DNA from: a virus | Length of the DNA stretch: 21,971 bases | Strand: one strand, 5' to 3' | IMG/VR virus record: IMGVR_UViG_3300011116_001105 | Span: 1-21,971 of that record | Shown: positions 13,363-21,971 of the stretch, in pieces | Layout: every line of letters begins with the position of its first letter | Position numbering within the stretch: position 1 is the first letter of the stretch | Position numbers and translations under genes: made by a program | Notes under the pieces: model-generated | Seen by the model: only the letters and a program-made list of their open reading frames with translations | The model's database searches: none | What the model was told of the DNA's origin: nothing

Positions 13363-13535
13363 TGACTAGAAACGAAAAAAAAATAGTTGATTTAATCCAG
13401 CTTATAGTATTCTTTTTAATGCTTGGGACTATATATCATCAAGCAATGACAATTAAAACACTACAAATTGAAGCAGAGCCGTGTGCTACTGCGGAAATGA
13501 TTGAGCAATGTATTAAACAAAAAGAGGGGGAATAA
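13362..13535 (+). CDS. Small single-span membrane protein (second of the trio)
   Basis: A 57-residue protein: short charged N-terminus (MTRNEKKIVD), membrane segment LIQLIVFFLMLGTIY (residues 11-25) and a C-terminal tail with two Cys (EPCATAEMIEQC). The start is supported by AAGGAGGAC 8-10 bases upstream and by TAATG overlaps with both neighbours. Two small Cys-containing membrane proteins in a row could interact. A spanin-like or holin-like role is conceivable but not shown. Confidence 0.6.
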   Translation: MTRNEKKIVDLIQLIVFFLMLGTIYHQAMTIKTLQIEAEPCATAEMIEQCIKQKEGE

Positions 13536-13690
13536 TGATTTTATCGATAATATTTATAATTTTATCAATTTATTTAGTTTTGATAATCTATGAAATAAAT
13601 AAGCCAGCTTATAAATTAGTTTTTAGACTTTTAAGAATATCAAAAAATAGGTTCAAGAAAAAACTTGACAATATTTTTAACAAACAATAA
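13535..13690 (+). CDS. Small membrane protein with basic tail (third of the trio)
   Basis: A 51-residue protein: N-terminal membrane segment (MILSIIFIILSIYLVLIIYE) followed by a strongly basic amphipathic tail (KLVFRLLRISKNRFKKKL). GAGGGGGA precedes the start. It overlaps the previous stop by one base. Hydrophobic segment plus basic tail is the layout of many membrane-active phage peptides; no family is recognised. Confidence 0.55.
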   Translation: MILSIIFIILSIYLVLIIYEINKPAYKLVFRLLRISKNRFKKKLDNIFNKQ

Positions 13691-13756
13691 ATTTAGTTGT
13701 GAAAATATTTCATAATTTATTAATTTTTTGTTAATATTTGATTGTTATTTTTCATA

Positions 13757-14003
13757 TAGAATAGTTAAGTTGGGCAAGGGGGAGTAGTTAGCCCCCTCGC
13801 TTTCTTATTGTGAGCCGTTCCCGTTTCGGGGTTGCATCCACTACGGCTCACAATTGGCAAGCGAAAGTTTTTATCTATATAATAATTGAAGCGATAGTTC
13901 ACAAAATAAGTATGCTTGCCTGCACATAAACATTTCGGGGGGGATTGTTTATTATTTATGGTGAGGCTTGCCCCCCGCAAGTCTTACCGCCACAAGGGGG
14001 AAT
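13757..14003 (+). promoter_or_regulatory. Structured RNA leader with potential SD-sequestering pseudoknot
   Basis: The region 13691-14003 contains no credible gene. From 13771 it is much richer in GC than its flanks and heavily base paired: AGGGGG (13777-13782) with CCCCCT (13792-13797); a perfect 11-bp helix TTGTGAGCCGT (13808-13818) with ACGGCTCACAA (13843-13853) enclosing a CCCG/CGGG hairpin; and a 12-bp hairpin 13960-13971 with 13977-13988 whose loop is CCCCC (13972-13976). That loop can pair either with G7 at 13937-13943 or with GGGGG at 13996-14000, which is the ribosome binding site of the next gene. A possible -10 (TAGAAT, 13757-13762) lies just before the structured part. This is the architecture of a translational switch. 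It matches no riboswitch class I can name. Confidence 0.6.
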
Positions 14004-14901: not shown

Positions 14902-15421
14902 TTTATCAGAAAAAGAGCTAGAAGATTTTTTATGCTCTAACAATAACTTAGAAAAATATCTAGGTTTAAAATTCATAGCAAGGCAAGTATCAATACCACC
15001 AGTTGGCATTATTGATATATTAGCATATCATAAAGAAAGTAAATGTTGGGTTATTATAGAATTAAAGAAAGATTCTTTAGATGCTTCAGCTTTTTGTCAA
15101 TTATCATCTTATTTAAATTATTATAAAAAAACAAAATCTTTTATAAATTATAAGTATTTTCAACGAGAAAGACAATTTTGTGGGTTATTAATTGGAAACG
15201 ATTTAGATTCTAATTTGATTAAGTGTGTTGATTATTATTCTGGTGTTAATTGCAATATAATAAATTATCGCCTTTTTAGTGCGACTTTAGAAAATGGAAT
15301 ACAATTTGATTGGTATAATAATGAGCAACAAGATATTGAAAATTGTCTTTTTGATATAGATAATAGAAATGACTTTAATCGCAATAATGCTTTGGAGGGG
15401 TTATGCAGCAAGGATTTATAA
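14873..15421 (+). CDS. PD-(D/E)XK family nuclease-like protein
   Basis: A 182-residue protein with the core of the restriction-endonuclease-like fold: an N-terminal helix (SEKELEDFLCSNNNLEKYLG), then strand GIIDILAY with Asp48, strand WVIIELKKD with Glu63 and Lys65, and a helix ASAFCQLSSYLNYY with Gln76. This gives the D-(14)-E-x-K signature plus the Q-L-x-x-Y helix seen in NucS- and RecB-like nucleases. It has no additional domain. It sits between small unknown genes and the replication initiator, so a role in processing replication intermediates or attacking host DNA fits. It overlaps the initiator gene by 19 bases. Confidence 0.75.
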   Translation: MTNQTQININLSEKELEDFLCSNNNLEKYLGLKFIARQVSIPPVGIIDILAYHKESKCWVIIELKKDSLDASAFCQLSSYLNYYKKTKSFINYKYFQRERQFCGLLIGNDLDSNLIKCVDYYSGVNCNIINYRLFSATLENGIQFDWYNNEQQDIENCLFDIDNRNDFNRNNALEGLCSKDL

Positions 15422-16206
15422 TAGTGCATAGAAAAATAACTGATAATTGGCTTTGGTTATCAGAGCCATTTACAAAATCTCAGGCTTGGATTGATTTGTT
15501 ATTAATTGCAAACCACACACCAAACTCTTTTTTCATTAGAGGTATAAAAATAGATGTTAAAAGAGGTCAAATTGGTTGGAGTGAAGAAAATATTGCTTTG
15601 CGTTGGAAATGGTCTAGAAATAAACTAAGAAAGTTTCTTAAAATGTTAGAAAAGGAACAACAGATTAAACAGCATAGAAGCAATATTATCAATATTATAG
15701 AGATTTTAAATTATGATATTTATCAGGATATGAACAACAAAAAGAACAACAAAAAGACAACAGAAAAACAACAGAATGAACAACAAAAAGACACAAACAA
15801 TGAATGTATAACTAATGAAGAACAATGTTTAATAAATGAAAAAGAAATAGAAGCAAAATATTTATTTTCAAAATTACCAATTTTCATTAACAAAGATTTG
15901 TGGAAAATTTTTATAGATTTTAGAATTTCAATAGCAACTAAGCATAAACCTTTTACAGAACATGCAAAAGAATTATTGCTAAAAGATTTAACAAACTTTG
16001 AGAATCTAAAAGCTGGTAATGCTAACATAGCACTTGAAAATTCAATTAAAAACAGTTGGCAGGGAGTATTTGAACCAAAACCAAACAACCAACAACAACA
16101 GCCGAAGCAAAATAACTATTACAAAAAAGATGATGAAGACCCATATCTTAAAGAAATAAGATACCAACTAGAAAAAAGAAATAATGGAGGAAATAATGGA
16201 AAATAA
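15403..16206 (+). CDS. Phage replication initiator with winged-helix N-terminus
   Basis: A 267-residue protein with the opening of phage replisome organisers: FIIVHRKITDNWLWLSEPFTK, QAWIDLLLIANH and VKRGQIGWSEENIALRWKWS, followed by the recognition helix NKLRKFLKMLEKEQQI and a wing (IIEILNYDIYQ). A Lys/Asn/Gln-rich linker covers about residues 110-140. The C-terminal domain (residues about 150-230) has DLWKIFIDFRISIATKHKPF and ends with NSIKNSWQGVFEP, as in DnaD/GpO-like proteins that load the helicase. GGAGGGG sets the start. The helicase follows directly, supporting the role: it binds the origin and recruits the helicase. Confidence 0.85.
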   Translation: MQQGFIIVHRKITDNWLWLSEPFTKSQAWIDLLLIANHTPNSFFIRGIKIDVKRGQIGWSEENIALRWKWSRNKLRKFLKMLEKEQQIKQHRSNIINIIEILNYDIYQDMNNKKNNKKTTEKQQNEQQKDTNNECITNEEQCLINEKEIEAKYLFSKLPIFINKDLWKIFIDFRISIATKHKPFTEHAKELLLKDLTNFENLKAGNANIALENSIKNSWQGVFEPKPNNQQQQPKQNNYYKKDDEDPYLKEIRYQLEKRNNGGNNGK

Positions 16207-17530
16207 GCATATAAACCAAGAGTTGGAGCTTCAAATAATTACCACCATCATAGCCAATAATTTCACTTATGCAAAAATACAGGGCTTAGTAAAACCTGAA
16301 CATTTCGCAACATTGGAAATACAAAAATTGTATAAATTTTTTGAGGAAAAAGTCAATCAAATGGAAGTTAATATCTTGACTTGTAAAAATTTCTTACAAG
16401 TCGAGTTTAAAGAGTTTGAAAATTTCTTTAGAGAGTTTTTTAATTATTATAGCGATTTAAGCATAGTAAATTATGACCTAGTATCTTTGGCTAAAGAATT
16501 GATTGAACTATATCAGAAACGAGAGTTTGACGCCTTTATTTCGAAATTAAATCAGGGAGGATATTATACTTTTGACGAAATTAAAAATAATGTCTTAACA
16601 AAACTTTATGATTTAGAAGTTGGAAATAATTCAGACCCTAAAAATATTTTAGATGGTATTAATGAAATTATGAGCAACAATCAAACAACAGCAATCTATT
16701 CTAATTTTAAACAATTGGACTTTATGTGTGGCGGTTTTGAGCTTGGCAACTTGGTTATTGTTGGTGGCAAACCATCTAGCGGAAAAACAACATTTTCTTT
16801 ATGTATGGCTATGCAAATGGCAATGAATTATAGTGTTTGTTTTTTTAGTGTAGAAGTAAAAGCAGTAGCAATATATCGTAAATTTCTGAATAATATCGCT
16901 TCAATGCAACATTATAAAATTAAAACTAAGACTTATAATGTTTATGAAGAGGAATTATTAAAAGAAAAAATTCAAAATGAGAAAGTTATTAAAAGGCAAC
17001 TATTAGTCTATGATACCAAAAAATTAACAATTAATTTACTTAGAAGCAAGATTAAAAAAATACTTTTAAGAAACAAACTTGATGCAATATTCATTGATTA
17101 TTTACAATTAATGACTCCAGAAGGCAAGGATTTTTCAAGGGAACAACAAATTGCTAAAATAGCTATTGGATTAAAACAAATTGCTACCGAGTTTAATATT
17201 GTTGTTGTTGCTTTGTCTCAATTATCAAGAAATAGTGATGTCCGAGAAAATAAGAAACCAGTATTAAGTGATTTAAGAGACTCTGGAAGCATTGAAGCAA
17301 GTGCTGATATTGTCTTATTCGTCCACAGAGACCACTACTATTTGCTACAAACTAAACCACCTGAACATAATCAGGCTAAATATATGGAGTGGCAACAAAT
17401 GGCTAAAAAGGTTGAATATGAAGCAGATATAATTATTGCAAAAAACAGAGATGGTATTTGCGGTGATGTTAAATTTATTTTTGATAAAGAATATTCAAGA
17501 TTTTCGGAGGCTCAAAATGATACATATTAA
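16196..17530 (+). CDS. dnaB-like: Replicative DNA helicase, DnaB family
   Basis: A 444-residue helicase. The N-terminal domain (IITTIIANNFTYAKIQGLVKP, HFATLEIQKLY) matches the DnaB N-terminal helical bundle. The RecA-like domain has Walker A GGKPSSGKTT (residues 190-199), Walker B AIFIDYLQLM with Asp301, LSQLSRNSD, then LSDLRDSGSIEASADIVLF and a closing IIIAKNRDG. GGAGG 4-8 bases before 16196 fixes that start rather than an ATG 12 bases upstream, which would also overlap the initiator more. It unwinds DNA at the phage fork. Confidence 0.95.
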   Translation: MENKHINQELELQIITTIIANNFTYAKIQGLVKPEHFATLEIQKLYKFFEEKVNQMEVNILTCKNFLQVEFKEFENFFREFFNYYSDLSIVNYDLVSLAKELIELYQKREFDAFISKLNQGGYYTFDEIKNNVLTKLYDLEVGNNSDPKNILDGINEIMSNNQTTAIYSNFKQLDFMCGGFELGNLVIVGGKPSSGKTTFSLCMAMQMAMNYSVCFFSVEVKAVAIYRKFLNNIASMQHYKIKTKTYNVYEEELLKEKIQNEKVIKRQLLVYDTKKLTINLLRSKIKKILLRNKLDAIFIDYLQLMTPEGKDFSREQQIAKIAIGLKQIATEFNIVVVALSQLSRNSDVRENKKPVLSDLRDSGSIEASADIVLFVHRDHYYLLQTKPPEHNQAKYMEWQQMAKKVEYEADIIIAKNRDGICGDVKFIFDKEYSRFSEAQNDTY

Positions 17531-17744
17531 AGAAATACAAGAAAAAATTTTAAATAATGCTAGAAAAGCAAAATTTTATCATCACAACAGAGATATTTTT
17601 ATTAAATATTTTGATTCTATTGAGCAATATAATTCGCTTATAATGAGTGGAAAATTTGATAAATTAGAACAAATAATTAATGAAAATACAAACTTCACAA
17701 TGTCTATTGTGGAGAATGTAATTAACAACTTAACTAAAAAATAA
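17517..17744 (+). CDS. Hypothetical small protein after the helicase
   Basis: A 75-residue helical protein (IKEIQEKILNNARKAKFYHHNRDIF at the start, ENVINNLTKK at the end). No family is recognised. The start at 17517 is supported by CGGAGG 7 bases upstream inside the helicase gene; a longer frame starting at 17436 would only read through the helicase. It overlaps the helicase stop by 14 bases. A helicase accessory role is guessed only from position. Confidence 0.6.
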   Translation: MIHIKEIQEKILNNARKAKFYHHNRDIFIKYFDSIEQYNSLIMSGKFDKLEQIINENTNFTMSIVENVINNLTKK

Positions 17745-17996
17745 ATGGAAAATAAAGTTAAAATTTTAAAGACTAAAGAAGGTTTTTTAAAAAATGAGAT
17801 ATTAATAGAATCACTTGGAAATTGCGGAATAGTGTTCGAGAGTTTCTTCGGAGATAGATTATTTTATCTTAAAAAAGGTAAAAGAAAATGGGTGAAAGTT
17901 CCAAAATCATTTGCTTTTCGCGAAGGTGAAATAATTGATTTTTGCGAAATTTGTAAATCATCGACAGCCTGGCAGTTTAGCTGGGATTTTTGTTAA
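17745..17996 (+). CDS. Hypothetical small protein
   Basis: An 83-residue protein, beta-rich, with GIVFESFFGDRLFYLKKGKR (about residues 28-47) and two close Cys near the end (DFCEICKSSTAW), followed by SWDFC. A Cys cluster of three could bind metal, but the spacing does not match a standard zinc finger. The ATG follows the previous stop without a gap, behind an ACTTAACTAAAAAATA leader. Confidence 0.55.
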   Translation: MENKVKILKTKEGFLKNEILIESLGNCGIVFESFFGDRLFYLKKGKRKWVKVPKSFAFREGEIIDFCEICKSSTAWQFSWDFC

Positions 17997-18013
17997 TTTA
18001 ATTAAAAAATAAT

Positions 18014-18232
18014 ATGGAAAATCAATGGCAACCGATACAAACAGCTCCAAAAGATGGAACCAAAATTTTAGTTTGCCACATCAACTATTATAGCCCTATA
18101 ACTGCTCTGTGGTCTTCTTATCATCCTAATGCAAAAGGCAAAGAAACGTGGCGCGAAGATGGTAGCAATTATAAATTGAATCCAACGCACTGGATGCCTT
18201 TACCGCCAAAACCCGAAACAGCAACAACTTAA
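18014..18232 (+). CDS. DUF551-family protein
   Basis: A 72-residue protein with the whole DUF551 signature: WQPIQTAPKDGTKILV at residues 5-20, a central Trp-containing segment (ITALWSSYHP) and the closing THWMPLPPKP at 58-67. The family is widespread in phages and prophages of Gram-negative bacteria, and its function is unknown. The full length is present. This is one of the clearer hints that the host is Gram-negative. Confidence 0.85.
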   Translation: MENQWQPIQTAPKDGTKILVCHINYYSPITALWSSYHPNAKGKETWREDGSNYKLNPTHWMPLPPKPETATT

Positions 18233-18246
18233 ATAAGGATTAGATT

Positions 18247-18537
18247 ATGAAAATTAAAAAGGTTATACTTCAAAGCGACTTAAGCGACGATTTTAAAGAC
18301 TTAAATCATAAACAGGGTTTACATCCTATCTTCGATCGAGACGATTTTCATTCAGTAGTTATTACTAGAGAAGCATTAGTTAGAGCAATTGATGTTAATA
18401 AACATCTCTTTGATAATCTTCCAGAGGTTAAACTATTAGCTGATAAGTTAATAAAACTTTTTGATGAATTCAACATAGATCTCTTGATACGGGATGTAGG
18501 ACTAGACGGTGGTCTAATGCTTCAGAAAAACAATTAA
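18247..18537 (+). CDS. Hypothetical protein
   Basis: A 96-residue protein, mixed alpha/beta (VILQSDLSDDFKDLN; SVVITREALVRAIDVNKHLF; LIKLFDEFNIDLLIRD). No family is recognised. AAGGA 8 bases before the ATG supports the start. It belongs to the accessory block after the replication genes. Confidence 0.6.
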   Translation: MKIKKVILQSDLSDDFKDLNHKQGLHPIFDRDDFHSVVITREALVRAIDVNKHLFDNLPEVKLLADKLIKLFDEFNIDLLIRDVGLDGGLMLQKNN

Positions 18538-18547
18538 TTTAGAATAT

Positions 18548-18787
18548 ATGAAAACAACAACAAATAAAAAATATAAACTTTGTAAAAACATATCTATTAA
18601 TGAATTAATGAAGTTTAAAATTCAGTTTCGTAAAAACTTTATATCAATTATGACAGATACTAGATTTAAAATTCCTGCTGATACAAAAAATGAAGCATTG
18701 ATAAAATGGGGAGAAATAGGAGTTATTTTTGATGCAACAATTGATGATATTTTAAAAACTCGTGATTGGAGAGACGAAAATTATTAG
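18548..18787 (+). CDS. Hypothetical small protein
   Basis: A 79-residue protein with a basic N-terminal half (KYKLCKNISINELMKFKIQFRK in part) and an acidic C-terminus (IDDILKTRDWRDENY). No family, membrane segment or motif is recognised. It starts 10 bases after the preceding stop, with no Shine-Dalgarno. Confidence 0.55.
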   Translation: MKTTTNKKYKLCKNISINELMKFKIQFRKNFISIMTDTRFKIPADTKNEALIKWGEIGVIFDATIDDILKTRDWRDENY

Positions 18788-18817
18788 AATTATTAACAAT
18801 TAACTTATTATATATAT

Positions 18818-19759
18818 ATGAAAACAATCGTAAAAATGAATTTTGGAAGTCATCTATACGGCACTAACACCGAAACAAGCGACAAAGATTTAAAAGGGGT
18901 TTATCTACCAAATTTAAATGATTGTATTGTAGGCAATGTCAAAAGAAGCATTGTTTCAAATACCAAAAGTAATGCTAACCAAAAAAACACCAATAAAGAT
19001 ATTGATTGTGAGATTTATTCACTTCAATATTTTTTGCTAGAGCTTGGAAAAAATGGTGATACAACTTTTTTAGATATGATTCACGCTCCAGATTCAATGC
19101 TAATTGAAAAAAGTGAGATATGGCAACAAATAAGAACTAATAGGGAAAAATTTTATACTAAAAGTTTAAAATCTTATATAGGATATTGTCGGTCTCAGGC
19201 TTCAAAATATGGCATCAAAGGTTCAAAATTAGAAGAGGCACAAAAAATCATTAATGTTTTAAATAAACATAATGAAAGTGAGAAGCTAGCTAATTTTTGG
19301 GAGGAATTACCTACAAGTGAATACACCAAAATATATGAAATTAAGAATTGCCAAGCAAAAGACAAAAGAGCCTTTGATTTTTGCGGAAAAAAATTAATGG
19401 CTGATACAAATGTGTTTTTTGCTAAACAAACCATACAAAAGTTTTATGATTCTTACGGGGAACGGGCAAGAATGGCTCAAGCTAATGAAGGGATTGATTG
19501 GAAGGCAATTTCTCACGCTTTTAGAGTTGGTTATCAATTAAAAGAATTGTACACAACTGGCGATTTAATTTTTCCTTTGAAAGATGCAGAATTTATAAAA
19601 GAGATTAAAAAACAAAAATTTCATTTTTCTAACGACAAAATAGCTGATAAGCTAGAAAACTTAGTTAATGAAATTGAAATTTTAGCTTCTAACTCAAATT
19701 ATCCTCAATCAGTTGATTTAACTTATTGGAATAATTTTATTATTAATCTTTATAAATAA
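18818..19759 (+). CDS. RlaP-type nucleotidyltransferase (polymerase beta superfamily, PF10127)
   Basis: A 313-residue protein. The N-terminus carries the family signature: MNFGSHLYGTNTETSDKDLKGV, with the Gly-Ser nucleotide-binding turn at residues 10-11, the metal-binding pair Asp22-x-Asp24, and the third acid in DIDCEIYSLQYF (around Asp63/Glu65). GDTTFLDMIHAP (80-91) and a long helical C-terminal half (KSLKSYIGYCRSQASKYG; KAISHAFRVGYQLKELYTTG) follow the usual layout. The family was named from association with RNA-repair ligases, and phage members are common, but the substrate is not established. All catalytic acids appear intact. No RNA ligase is in the window. The AT-rich leader ATTAACTTATTATATATAT precedes the start. 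Confidence 0.85.
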   Translation: MKTIVKMNFGSHLYGTNTETSDKDLKGVYLPNLNDCIVGNVKRSIVSNTKSNANQKNTNKDIDCEIYSLQYFLLELGKNGDTTFLDMIHAPDSMLIEKSEIWQQIRTNREKFYTKSLKSYIGYCRSQASKYGIKGSKLEEAQKIINVLNKHNESEKLANFWEELPTSEYTKIYEIKNCQAKDKRAFDFCGKKLMADTNVFFAKQTIQKFYDSYGERARMAQANEGIDWKAISHAFRVGYQLKELYTTGDLIFPLKDAEFIKEIKKQKFHFSNDKIADKLENLVNEIEILASNSNYPQSVDLTYWNNFIINLYK

Positions 19760-19763
19760 TAAT

Positions 19764-20153
19764 ATGAAAACAACAAATTACGAAATATCAAAGAAACTCA
19801 AAGAAGCGGGATTTGATGCTCAGTCAAGTTTTTTTTGGTGCGAGTTAGGTAAAGATTTAATTAAGATACATATTTCACAATCTCACTCAGTGCCTGAATC
19901 ATTAGATAAAATAAGAGCTTATGACCTCGAAACGCTACTCGATGCTTTGCCTAAAAAAATTAAATTTAAAGAAAAAGAGTATTGTTTTTGGATGCAATGG
20001 TCTGGATGTTCTGATTGTTATATCATGGGCTATGTTTATGGAAACCTGCGGGCTACTGAATTGGAGGTTTCGAGATACGATGATGAAAACAAATCACTCG
20101 CCGACATTGCTGGCGAAATGTGGCTAATATTGAAAAAAAAGGGGTTGATGTAA
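19764..20153 (+). CDS. Recurrent phage protein of unknown function
   Basis: A 129-residue protein with three features I associate with a widespread but uncharacterised phage family: TNYEISKKLKEAGFDAQSSF at the N-terminus, AYDLETLLDALPKKI at 52-66, and SLADIAGEMWLILKKKG near the C-terminus. These are typical of phage proteins annotated only as hypothetical. The centre has several Cys (YCFWMQWSGCSDCYIMGY). It begins 4 bases after the preceding stop, so it is co-transcribed with the nucleotidyltransferase. Confidence 0.7.
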   Translation: MKTTNYEISKKLKEAGFDAQSSFFWCELGKDLIKIHISQSHSVPESLDKIRAYDLETLLDALPKKIKFKEKEYCFWMQWSGCSDCYIMGYVYGNLRATELEVSRYDDENKSLADIAGEMWLILKKKGLM

Positions 20154-20154
20154 T

Positions 20155-20616
20155 ATGAACTATATATCAGACAAAAATTTAGTTAAAATTGTTATATTTC
20201 CTTATTTTTTGGGAACTCTTGCTTTAAATGGCATAACAAAAAACACTAATGAATTTTTTAAGCTATGTGAATCTTGTTATTTGGAAATTTTGGATAAATA
20301 TCAAAAAAAAGATAAACTTGCTAAATTAAATAATCGCTTAGACATATTGACAAACAAAGCTATCTATGAGTTGGCAAACAAACAAACTAAAGAAGTAAAC
20401 ACTCACAAAGCAATTATTGTTATTAATGAAATAGCACAAATGGCAATTGATGCTAATTTATTCGATTATGAAATGCAGGCGAAGATAGCAAGTCTATTAG
20501 AACCATTTCAAGAGATTGAAACAAGAATGGATATTAGCAATGATGATTGGCTGATGCTTAAAAACTCGGCTGAAAAACAGGCTAAGAAAATTTATGAAAT
20601 ATTTTTTAAGGAGTAA
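20155..20616 (+). CDS. Hypothetical helical protein
   Basis: A 153-residue, helix-rich protein (LAKLNNRLDILTNKAIYELAN; KAIIVINEIAQMAIDANLF; WLMLKNSAEKQAKKIYEIFF). The N-terminus is somewhat hydrophobic (LVKIVIFPYFLGTLALNG) but not a clear membrane span. No family is recognised. It starts one base after the previous stop. Confidence 0.6.
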   Translation: MNYISDKNLVKIVIFPYFLGTLALNGITKNTNEFFKLCESCYLEILDKYQKKDKLAKLNNRLDILTNKAIYELANKQTKEVNTHKAIIVINEIAQMAIDANLFDYEMQAKIASLLEPFQEIETRMDISNDDWLMLKNSAEKQAKKIYEIFFKE

Positions 20617-20618
20617 TT

Positions 20619-20684
20619 ATGGAGCCAGCAATTCTTTTATTAGTCATAATTGTTTTAGGACAATTATCAATATTAGATTGGTAA
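20619..20684 (+). CDS. 21-residue membrane peptide
   Basis: The frame encodes MEPAILLLVIIVLGQLSILD plus a final Trp. Nearly the whole peptide is one membrane segment. An AAGGAG Shine-Dalgarno 6 bases before the ATG, a 2-base gap to the previous stop and a 1-base gap to the next start make it more than a chance frame. Function unknown; it could also serve to couple translation of its neighbours. Confidence 0.45.
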   Translation: MEPAILLLVIIVLGQLSILDW

Positions 20685-20685
20685 T

Positions 20686-20979
20686 ATGATTTTAATTATT
20701 GATGACCAAAATATTAATTTAGTTTTATGGAATTTTCTTTTAAAAAAAGATAATATTGTTTATGCACAAAGACTAGAAACCAAGCATCTTGGGATAAATT
20801 GGGATTTTGTTTTTATCGATAAAAATGGCGATGAAGATGGATTGGTAGTAATGGACAGATTGTTGCTTGCTAATCCTAGGTTGGCAGGCAAGATATTTAT
20901 AATCAGTGAAAGTGATTATGTGTTAAATAATTTTATTCACAAAAGCAATTTGATTGATTTTATTAAAAATATTTTTTGA
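20686..20979 (+). CDS. Stand-alone response-regulator receiver-like protein
   Basis: A 97-residue protein with the layout of a CheY-type receiver: MILIIDDQNI with Asp6/Asp7, WDFVFIDKNG with the presumed phosphorylated Asp45, KIFIISES with Ser74 at the Thr/Ser switch position, and FIHKSNLIDFI with Lys86. It is shorter than the usual 115-125 residues, mainly between the first helix and the phospho-Asp strand, and it has no output domain or nearby kinase. It could intercept host phosphorelays or be a non-phosphorylated relative. The family call is moderately sure; activity is unknown. Confidence 0.6.
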   Translation: MILIIDDQNINLVLWNFLLKKDNIVYAQRLETKHLGINWDFVFIDKNGDEDGLVVMDRLLLANPRLAGKIFIISESDYVLNNFIHKSNLIDFIKNIF

Positions 20980-21043
20980 TTATTTTATAAAAACACTTGC
21001 CAAACCTTACGGCTGTAGGCAAAAAAATACTTTAAAAAAGTGC

Positions 21044-21072
21044 TTGACATTATGCAAGTAAATAATTATAAT
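21044..21072 (+). promoter_or_regulatory. Perfect consensus sigma70-type promoter of the large RNA
   Basis: TTGACA (21044-21049), a 17-base spacer and TATAAT (21067-21072) match the consensus at every position. A/T tracts just upstream (21021-21040) resemble an UP element. Transcription should start around 21079 and be strong. No open reading frame of coding quality follows. Confidence 0.85.
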
Positions 21073-21104
21073 ATTAATAATGCAAATATGCAGAATTACA
21101 GTTA

Positions 21105-21338
21105 GCCTTCTGTAAAAAGGCAATAACTCGGCACGAGTAAAGATGAGTGCATAACTTTTTGATAATCCGTTGGCTTAACGATACAGCCCACTTAATTTGG
21201 TATCAAATTAAGAATGAAATAAGCGTCAAATACCCGTCGGAAAGCGATTTATGGAGCGGGGCGATAATCAGCATCGTAGTAGGCGTATCCGCAAGTCTAA
21301 GAGCTGGTAAGCGGTCTGTTAGCCTTCAGTAAAAAGGC
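21105..21338 (+). repeat. Repeated anticodon-arm-like hairpin
   Basis: The unit GTTAGCCTTC(T/A)GTAAAAAGGC occurs at 21101-21121 and 21318-21338. Each forms a 5-bp stem GCCTT/AAGGC with a 7-nt loop, CTGTAAA in the first and CAGTAAA in the second. The first loop is identical to the tRNA-Tyr-type anticodon loop at 21433-21439. Given coordinates span both copies. Confidence 0.8.
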
Positions 21339-21400
21339 AAATTACTCCTCTGCCTAGTGTAAAAGGAGCTTCTGAGTTCGTCCAAAAGGCGTTCTCTGTT

Positions 21401-21486
21401 GGGTTGCTATACTGCTAAATACGCAGTCCAGACTGTAAATCTGGCGCAGAAATGCTGGCTAGGAGAGTTACCTAGGCAACCCACCA
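21401..21486 (+). other. tRNA-Tyr(GUA)-like cloverleaf embedded in the large RNA
   Basis: 86 nt, as long as a normal bacterial tRNA-Tyr. Acceptor GGGTTGC (21401-21407) pairs perfectly with GCAACCC (21476-21482), followed by A and an encoded CCA. D-like arm ACTGC/GCAGT (21411-21427) with loop TAAATAC. Anticodon arm CCAGA-CTGTAAA-TCTGG (21428-21444) with anticodon GTA. A 14-nt variable region (21445-21458) with a GCA-GAAA-TGC mini-hairpin, as in class II tRNAs. T-like arm CTAGG/CCTAG (21459-21475). The D-loop lacks the GG pair and the T-loop reads AGAGTTA instead of TTCRANY, so the normal tRNA elbow cannot form. It may be a mimic, a diverged tRNA or a decayed one. Confidence 0.75.
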
Positions 21487-21518
21487 ATTCAGTTATTAAG
21501 TATTTCTTAATAACTTGT

Positions 21519-21597
21519 GCGGCTGTCTGTCAAAAGGTTATTGGTTAGGTTCAAGAAAATTTGACGAGATTGTGATTCGATTCATAAAGCCGCTCCA
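21519..21597 (+). other. Possible second tRNA-like domain (acceptor, T-arm-like hairpin, CCA)
   Basis: GCGGCT (21519-21524) pairs with AGCCGC (21588-21593), followed by T and CCA. Just inside, TTGTG/CATAA (21570-21574 with 21583-21587) closes a loop containing TTCGATT, a canonical T-loop sequence with one extra A. GTCAAA (21529-21534) pairs with TTTGAC (21560-21565) where D and anticodon arms would be, with a 25-nt loop. The 79-nt length is tRNA-sized. It has no proper anticodon arm, so it is closer to a tRNA-like domain than to a tRNA. Confidence 0.4.
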
Positions 21598-21766
21598 AAA
21601 TTTTACAAAGCGGCGCTAAAGTAGTTCTGGTAAATTAAAATCTCTTAAATCCAGCCGTATGACGATATGGTTTACAAGACCCAACACTGCCGAAAAGGTC
21701 GCTCCTTTTTACAAGTGCGAGGTTGCTTCCATGAGGAGGGAAGTTAGTTCCGCTCCGTAAGATTTT

Positions 21767-21790
21767 AAAGGTGTCGAATTCGACACCTTT
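21767..21790 (+). repeat. 24-bp perfect palindrome
   Basis: AAAGGTGTCG, AATT, CGACACCTTT form a perfect inverted repeat. In RNA it gives a 10-bp hairpin with a self-complementary AAUU loop. Downstream T content is short (TTTTAG), so it is not a convincing terminator. Confidence 0.85.
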
Positions 21791-21971
21791 TAGAACTAGA
21801 ATAGTCCTGAGTGCATACGGGACTTAAAATCAGTTGTGCGCTTAACTCTGTGAAGCGGAGACGAGGGAATAAGCCAAGAATCGCACCAGCTCATCTATTA
21901 TTGGATGGGAACGAACTTTTGGAGGGCGAGACAAAGCGGGGCTGTGCGACATTGGTATCGGCTGCGTGATG

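What the first reader, a model, noticed from the sequence alone, without database searches (positions are those of the whole stretch)
21044..21971. Strongly expressed giant structured RNA at the end of the early operon
Seen directly: a perfect TTGACA-17-TATAAT promoter with upstream A tracts, followed by about 890 nt without a credible gene and with many perfect helices, still running at the window edge. Known: giant ornate RNAs such as GOLLD and ROOL are phage-linked, 600-900 nt, abundant, and reported to assemble into large RNA-only cages. Inference: this is a divergent member or a new class.
Basis: partly seen in the sequence, partly recalled or inferred. Interest (0 to 1): 0.9.

Follow-up and report, generated by a model that had tools for sequence, protein, structure and literature searches.

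The report
Phage island of structured, tRNA-like RNAs
Behind a very strong promoter, a virus whose nearest relatives sit in Rickettsiales bacterial genomes carries not one giant RNA but a string of small folded RNA modules (pseudoknots, a tyrosine-tRNA look-alike and other domains) that are reshuffled between related viruses and are absent from the RNA family database.

Summary
In detail: a perfect TTGACA-17-TATAAT promoter (21044-21072), then 893 nt without a credible gene (longest ORF 61 aa), GC-rich (43% against 27%) and strongly folded (z -5.1), cut by the end of the virus record. "One giant ornate RNA" is not supported. In the closest syntenic relative the promoter is 91% identical, but the transcribed cargo is entirely different and starts with a tRNA. 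About 45 other contigs carry the same modules in different orders, mixed with true tRNAs. The window has two H-type pseudoknot modules: M1 (twice) and M2, both supported by compensatory changes. They form a recurring unit, M2, then 91-461 nt, then M1 (28 times; reverse order 3; opposite strand 0). It also has module Y, an 86-nt perfect class II cloverleaf with GUA anticodon and CCA that lacks the D- and T-loop consensus, and the 5' part of a fourth conserved module, X. Rfam has none of these; GOLLD and ROOL do not match. Best reading: a phage tRNA/ncRNA island, swappable cassettes behind a fixed strong promoter, probably serving tRNA-centred counter-defence (inferred; an RlaP RNA-repair gene lies about 1.3 kb upstream). 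New RNA modules, known kind of locus.

The parts
21044..21072 (+). Consensus sigma-70 promoter TTGACA-17-TATAAT; likely start near 21079
   Evidence: Only 12/12 match in 7 kb; conserved 12/12 in L044 with 91% identity over window 20941-21079; 10-11/12 promoters at the same place in L012, L020, L027, L037, L045, L052, L054, L065
21099..21121 (+). M1 pseudoknot, copy 1: CAG-UUA-GCC-UU-CUG-UAAAAA-GGC
   Evidence: Exact 22-nt motif in 27 other viral contigs and 2 Rickettsiales MAGs; pseudoknot pairs counted
21126..21150 (+). M2 pseudoknot: ACUC-G-GCAC-GAGU-AAAGAUGA-GUGC
   Evidence: 20 distinct relatives, 95.6% of cells paired, 25 double-sided changes against 8.3 in shuffles
21151..21315 (+). Variable body of one M2-body-M1 unit
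   Evidence: No similarity outside the flanking pseudoknots in any locus; unit syntax
21316..21338 (+). M1 pseudoknot, copy 2: CUG-UUA-GCC-UU-CAG-UAAAAA-GGC (compensatory swap relative to copy 1)
   Evidence: Sequence; pair counts
21341..21398 (+). Module Y, CUCCUCUGCCUAGUGUAAAAGGAG...CUGAGUUCGUCC...AAGGCGUUCUCUG
   Evidence: 81-87% identical to L016, L025, L075, L076, L077
21401..21486 (+). tRNA-Tyr-like cloverleaf with encoded CCA, class II variable arm, anticodon GUA, non-canonical D and T loops
   Evidence: MFE structure is exactly the cloverleaf, -30.6 kcal/mol, z -2.6, also within the global fold; full descriptor hits 3 non-ARAGORN sites in all loci, 0 in 842 kb shuffled
21486..21515 (+). 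Perfect-stem hairpin; 97% identical over 30 nt to part of a RhuM-family gene in a Rickettsiales genome
21767..21790 (+). 24-bp perfect palindrome AAAGGTGTCGAATTCGACACCTTT, shared with Rickettsiales genomes
   Evidence: exact copies in 3 of 47 family genomes, a 2-mismatch copy in a fourth
21910..21971 (+). 5' part of module X, GAGGGC-GAG-ACAAAGCGG...CGUGAUG, cut off by the record end
   Evidence: R1 covariance model, 3'-truncated hit, 12.9 bits, E 0.033 in 4 kb; 17/18 identity to L027 in the core; X closing helix 100% paired with 19 double-sided changes
18818..19759 (+). RlaP-family RNA-repair nucleotidyltransferase gene in the operon upstream (context)
   Evidence: Pfam PF10127, E 3e-13

Best explanation
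This is a phage tRNA/non-coding-RNA island: a fixed, very strong promoter at the end of the early operon that drives a string of exchangeable small structured RNAs. Each unit is typically opened by pseudoknot M2 and closed by pseudoknot M1. Tandem M1/M2/Y modules, tRNAs or tRNA-like cloverleaves and domain X are joined in a different order in each phage. Shown here: the modules, the two pseudoknots (by covariation), the unit syntax, the conserved promoter with swapped cargo, and the tRNA-Tyr-like cloverleaf. Inferred: the long transcript is cut by host tRNA-processing enzymes; the pseudoknots mark and protect ends. The tRNA-Tyr-like RNA keeps bacterial tyrosine identity features (G1-C72, A73, GUA, long variable arm) but lacks the D/T-loop nucleotides that build the elbow. 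It would therefore act mainly as a decoy or substitute for tRNA-Tyr against tRNA-cutting defences, alongside the RlaP repair enzyme. I put about 0.75 on the island description, and about 0.35 on the counter-defence function given that.
For: Cargo swap: L044 matches the window at 91% from the upstream ORF through the start site, then only M1/M2 match; its cargo begins with tRNA-Asn although a flanking protein is 93% identical. Modules: M1 exact in 27 other contigs and in 2 Rickettsiales MAGs. Over the loci, 46 M1 and 42 M2 lie on one strand, 0 on the other; M2 then M1 28 times (91-461 nt), M1 then M2 3 times. Covariation: M2, M1 with 3 compensated pairs, X closing helix. tRNAs among the modules. 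Window cloverleaf. Promoters at the same site in relatives. RlaP. Precedents: phage tRNA-Tyr from an exceptionally strong promoter in a tRNA-rich region defeats retron-Eco7 (PMC11555353); Septu cuts the tRNA-Tyr variable loop (PMC13096335); Tyr identity set (PMC9976931); RlaP restores bases lost from RNA ends (PMC7824862).
Against: No expression, processing or charging data exist. RlaP is absent from the fetched flanks of the other loci, so the repair link may be private to this phage. Canonical tRNA models do not score the cloverleaf, and its anticodon arm overlaps an alternative pseudoknot reading. About half of the window RNA (most of 21487-21920) has no homologue to test. The M2 and M1 alignments were assembled by hand; M2 variants with shifted register or an 8-nt loop were left out. 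The island cannot be seen to end in this record.
Confidence: 0.6

Rival explanations
1. A single giant ornate RNA of a new class (GOLLD/ROOL-like in behaviour): the modules are domains of one molecule that folds, perhaps oligomerises, and carries tRNA-like parts in variable linkers as GOLLD sometimes does.
For: Strong fold, several pseudoknots, phage and tRNA-island setting, as described for GOLLD/ROOL (PMC12286853); no internal terminator called on the + strand after the promoter.
Against: No Rfam hit in the window or in complete islands. The closest syntenic relative has unrelated cargo behind the same promoter. X stands 39 nt after the promoter and is followed by a tRNA in L045, but about 850 nt after it in the window. 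Modules recur in different order.
Confidence: 0.18
2. A long structured 5' leader that regulates the gene beyond the record end: M1 as a cis-acting element just before the start region of the next gene.
For: In about ten relatives M1 is followed within about 50 nt by an AU-rich leader and an ATG.
Against: Elsewhere M1 is followed by a tRNA (L015, L027, L044) or by another module; in the window copy 1 is only about 20 nt into the transcript and followed by M2.
Confidence: 0.12
3. A graveyard of gene and tRNA debris gathered by recombination, with no selected RNA function.
For: Short pieces match a RhuM-family gene and a palindrome found in KilA-N-like genes of Rickettsiales; the tRNA-like element lacks canonical loops.
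Against: Promoter kept perfect in L044 and near-perfect elsewhere; fold z -5.1; compensatory changes in M1, M2 and X; strict strand and order of M2/M1.
Confidence: 0.1

Closest known systems
tRNA-rich regions of T5- and T4-like phages (T5 tRNA-Tyr against retron-Eco7; T6 tRNA-Tyr against Septu)
   Same: Phage tRNA cluster behind a strong promoter, including a tRNA-Tyr; established counter-defence role (PMC11555353, PMC13096335)
   Different: Here many elements are not canonical tRNAs; covarying pseudoknot modules M1/M2 and domain X are mixed in; the window's Tyr element lacks D- and T-loop consensus
GOLLD and ROOL RNAs (Rfam; PMC12286853)
   Same: Phage-borne, large, structured, with pseudoknots, near tRNA islands; GOLLD linkers can hold tRNAs
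   Different: No covariance-model match; no conserved overall architecture; modules reshuffled
Stable RNAs C and D in the T4 tRNA cluster (own knowledge, not checked)
   Same: Non-tRNA stable RNAs inside a phage tRNA cluster
   Different: No sequence comparison was made; here the extra RNAs dominate and recur as families
Plant-virus tyrosylatable tRNA-like structures and upstream pseudoknot domains (PMC9976931 for TLS; the pseudoknot domain from own knowledge)
   Same: Consecutive H-type pseudoknots next to a Tyr-type tRNA mimic
   Different: DNA phage, internal rather than genome 3' end, bacterial identity pair G1-C72, ordinary unknotted acceptor stem

Membership tests
GOLLD / ROOL giant ornate RNAs | Match to the Rfam covariance model | tested here: not met
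   No hit at gathering score in the window or at E<=5 in 20900-21971; none in related islands. The window lacks its 3' end, where GOLLD is most conserved, so complete relatives are the better test
GOLLD / ROOL giant ornate RNAs | Conserved overall architecture across homologues | tested here: not met
   Only M1, M2, Y and X are shared; order and spacing differ
GOLLD / ROOL giant ornate RNAs | RNA-only oligomeric cage | not testable with these tools
   Needs cryo-EM or mass photometry
Canonical bacterial tRNA-Tyr | Class II cloverleaf with GUA anticodon, A73, G1-C72, CCA | tested here: met
   21401-21486, MFE structure; descriptor; identity set from PMC9976931
Canonical bacterial tRNA-Tyr | G18G19 in the D loop, TTC in the T loop; recognised by tRNA models | tested here: not met
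   D loop UAAAUAC, T loop AGAGUUA; no ARAGORN or Rfam tRNA hit; only ARAGORN's relaxed mitochondrial mode calls it Tyr
Phage tRNA-rich region | tRNA genes clustered behind one promoter | tested here: met
   Met in relatives L044, L062, L068, L054, L037; in the window itself only a tRNA-like element, up to the cut
tmRNA | Rfam or ARAGORN tmRNA hit | tested here: not met
   a 17-nt T-arm match in L027 only, E 0.03
H-type pseudoknot | Two interleaved helices kept by compensatory changes | tested here: met
   M2: both helices change on both sides, 95.6% paired, slid controls 41% or less; M1: weaker, 3 compensated pairs, 2/500 shuffles

The most novel reading that the evidence does not exclude
A new, modular class of phage RNAs: units bracketed by a 5' pseudoknot (M2) and a 3' pseudoknot (M1), exchanged as cassettes behind one fixed promoter and carrying elbow-less tRNA mimics that are charged or cut like tRNA but do not translate, as an RNA-based, swappable arsenal against tRNA-targeting immunity.
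Probability: 0.25. Interest if true: 0.85.

Novelty: new variant of a known kind. Interest (0 to 1): 0.68.

Why it matters
Several structured RNA modules (M1, M2, X, Y) recur across uncultured phages, with compensatory changes in M1, M2 and X, yet match nothing in Rfam 15 and gave no hit in 50,697 phage records. They define new RNA families and a simple grammar (M2, body, M1) that can be tested directly. If the tRNA-like elements are decoys, the locus would be a hot-swap site for RNA counter-defence, extending the tRNA-Tyr arms race known in E. coli to phages of Rickettsiales-like hosts, where almost nothing is known about phage-host conflict. It also warns that 'giant phage RNAs' predicted from sequence can be arrays.

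Tried and rejected
GOLLD/ROOL/OLE or any other Rfam family: rejected. M1 as a plain hairpin or tRNA-Tyr anticodon-arm mimic (loop CUGUAAA): rejected, because copy 2 and L044 change CAG/CUG to CUG/CAG and UAG/CUA, which the pseudoknot predicts and which breaks U33 of an anticodon loop. tmRNA: rejected. Homologues of the whole 893 nt in cultured phages: none. The search for related loci with the 97-aa ORF: none. Exact M2 of the window: none elsewhere. The X pattern scan returned many GC-rich coding false positives, discarded by eye; likewise five M1-core hits that lie in coding sequence (L030-L032, L034, L035). Palindrome 21767-21790 as terminator: unlikely, since in a relative it lies 15 nt upstream of a start codon. 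Breakpoint enrichment at M1: not attempted, because loci were selected for M1. RlaP as a constant partner: not supported.

Full report
OBSERVATION. The promoter at 21044-21072 is a perfect consensus and the only 12/12 match in 15000-21971. The 893 nt that follow have no ORF above 61 aa, 43% GC against 27% in the early operon, and a fold 5.1 standard deviations below dinucleotide shuffles. The window is a complete 21,971-bp linear virus record, so the RNA is truncated by the end of the data. The record carries terminase, portal, capsid, prohead protease and DnaB genes, with an RlaP RNA-repair nucleotidyltransferase about 1.3 kb upstream of the promoter.

NO KNOWN RNA. Nothing in Rfam 15 matches at gathering score, and at E<=5 only one chance microRNA match appears. 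Cultured phages have no similar DNA.

A REPEATED MODULE OPENS THE CASE. The RNA holds GTTAGCCTTC[T/A]GTAAAAAGGCAA twice, 217 nt apart. That 22-base pattern occurs exactly in 27 other IMG/VR contigs and, among 84,980 species genomes, only in two Rickettsiales MAGs. A two-mismatch search of 344 genomes of that order adds two weak sites, in G093 (not examined) and G249; G249 proved to carry the same array. Rickettsiales as host is therefore likely, but rests on binned contigs.

SYNTENY SHOWS CARGO SWAPPING. L044 (MAG JTM.66) has the same three upstream genes; the nearest proteins are 88-93% identical. It is 91% identical to the window through the promoter to the start site and then shares only M1 and M2; its cargo starts with tRNA-Asn and includes tRNA-Gln. 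L045, L012, L020, L027, L052, L054, L065 and others have the same kind of promoter and other cargo. In L045 and L020 a module called X stands 39 nt after the promoter; in L045 a tRNA follows it. In the window X is about 850 nt downstream. Noncoding blocks of 50-200 nt at 90-98% identity sit at different places in different contigs. This is an array, not one conserved giant RNA.

THE MODULES. M1 is an H-type pseudoknot, CAG-UUA-GCC-UU-CUG-UAAAAA-GGC. The window's second copy reads CUG...CAG, and a copy in L044 reads UAG...CUA. On 13 distinct sequences 93.6% of cells pair and three pairs have compensatory changes, reached by 2 of 500 shuffles. M2 is also an H-type pseudoknot, ACUC-G-GCAC-GAGU-AAAGAUGA-GUGC. 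On 20 distinct sequences 95.6% pair against 78.8% in shuffles, with 25 double-sided changes against 8.3 (0 of 500) and both helices contributing; slid controls pair at 41% or less. These sequences were gathered by loop similarity and trimmed by hand; shifted and short-loop variants were left out, one broken chimera kept. An unbiased descriptor finds 7 clusters of A-rich-loop pseudoknots in the window RNA against a mean of 2.2 (maximum 5) in 30 shuffles and 0-3 in coding controls. M1 and M2 obey a grammar: 46 M1 and 42 M2, none on the opposite strand; M2 then M1 28 times at 91-461 nt, the reverse 3 times. Some contigs are related, so these counts are not independent events. X is closed by an 8-bp helix, 100% paired with 19 double-sided changes. 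The window's last 62 nt hit the X model as a 3'-truncated match, E 0.033 in 4 kb, with 17 of 18 core bases identical to L027. Y is shared with five contigs.

THE TYROSINE-tRNA LOOK-ALIKE. 21401-21486 folds exactly as a class II tRNA: 7-bp acceptor, 5-bp D, anticodon and T stems, 3-bp variable arm, A73 and CCA, with anticodon GUA. The same cloverleaf is part of the global fold. A full cloverleaf descriptor finds 16 tRNAs known to ARAGORN and three others in the loci searched, and none in 842 kb of shuffled sequence. It carries the bacterial tyrosine identity features (PMC9976931) but lacks GG in the D loop and TTC in the T loop, so standard tools miss it. Its anticodon arm can also be drawn as an M1-like pseudoknot; the cloverleaf explains far more pairs.

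MECHANISM. Shown: promoter, modules, pseudoknots, grammar, swapping, cloverleaf. Inferred: one transcript, cut by tRNA-processing enzymes, pseudoknots protecting ends, tRNA mimics as decoys or substitutes. The precedent is direct. T5 uses a strongly expressed tRNA-Tyr in a tRNA-rich region against retron-Eco7 (PMC11555353); [quoted passage not shown] RlaP enzymes are predicted to restore bases lost from cut RNAs (PMC7824862). But RlaP was not found near the other islands.

LOOSE ENDS. Two hairpins in the second half (21486-21515 and 21767-21790) match short pieces in Rickettsiales genomes: a RhuM-family gene, and a palindrome found upstream of that gene and inside KilA-N-like frames (the KilA-N label is my reading of the translated frame, not a database hit). 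They may be shared operators, pairing sites or debris. Most of 21487-21920 has no homologue that could test its structure.

VERDICT. It is better described as a modular phage RNA island with new pseudoknot families and a tRNA mimic than as one giant ornate RNA; the missing 3' end leaves some room for the latter.

Noticed in passing
window 18818-19759: RlaP-family (PF10127) RNA-repair nucleotidyltransferase in the early operon, without a detected RNA ligase among the ten window proteins scanned.
   Followed up: partly
window 21486-21515 and 21767-21790: Hairpins nearly identical to a piece of a RhuM-family gene and to a 24-bp palindrome that lies upstream of that gene and inside KilA-N-like ORFs; the palindrome is in 4 of 47 Rickettsiales family genomes.
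   Followed up: partly
window 13765-13960: GC-rich intergenic stretch with strong inverted repeats (ATTGTGAGCCGT...ACGGCTCACAAT; CTTGCC/GGCAAG) between two small-gene clusters; fold z -3.4 for 13363-13967. Possibly another structured RNA or a replication element.
   Followed up: no
L009 13787-13861 (- strand coordinates) and L015 1701-1789 (same): Two more full cloverleaves with CCA that ARAGORN misses: a Trp-like one with T loop GGCAGAA and a Ser-like one with a long variable arm.
   Followed up: no
L003, L012, L023, L027 just upstream of M1: tRNA-like RNAs with canonical T arm and acceptor stem but the anticodon domain replaced by extra hairpins, ending exactly where M1 begins.
   Followed up: no
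L044 2345-2508, L018, L025: Element with conserved TGTCAGCGGTCGACCAGTAGGC and a CCTACC...CCTCCCACCA 3' end: a long tRNA-like RNA with CCA, shared by unrelated contigs.
   Followed up: no
L044, L005, L039, L008: AT-rich connectors AAATATTTAAATGG...TTTTTAAATATT that pair with each other around variable RNA elements, possibly processing stems.
   Followed up: no
L044 5375-5675 and 5946-6207: Two low-complexity repeat regions open in both strands and several frames (Gly/Asp-rich and Glu/Thr-rich readings).
   Followed up: no
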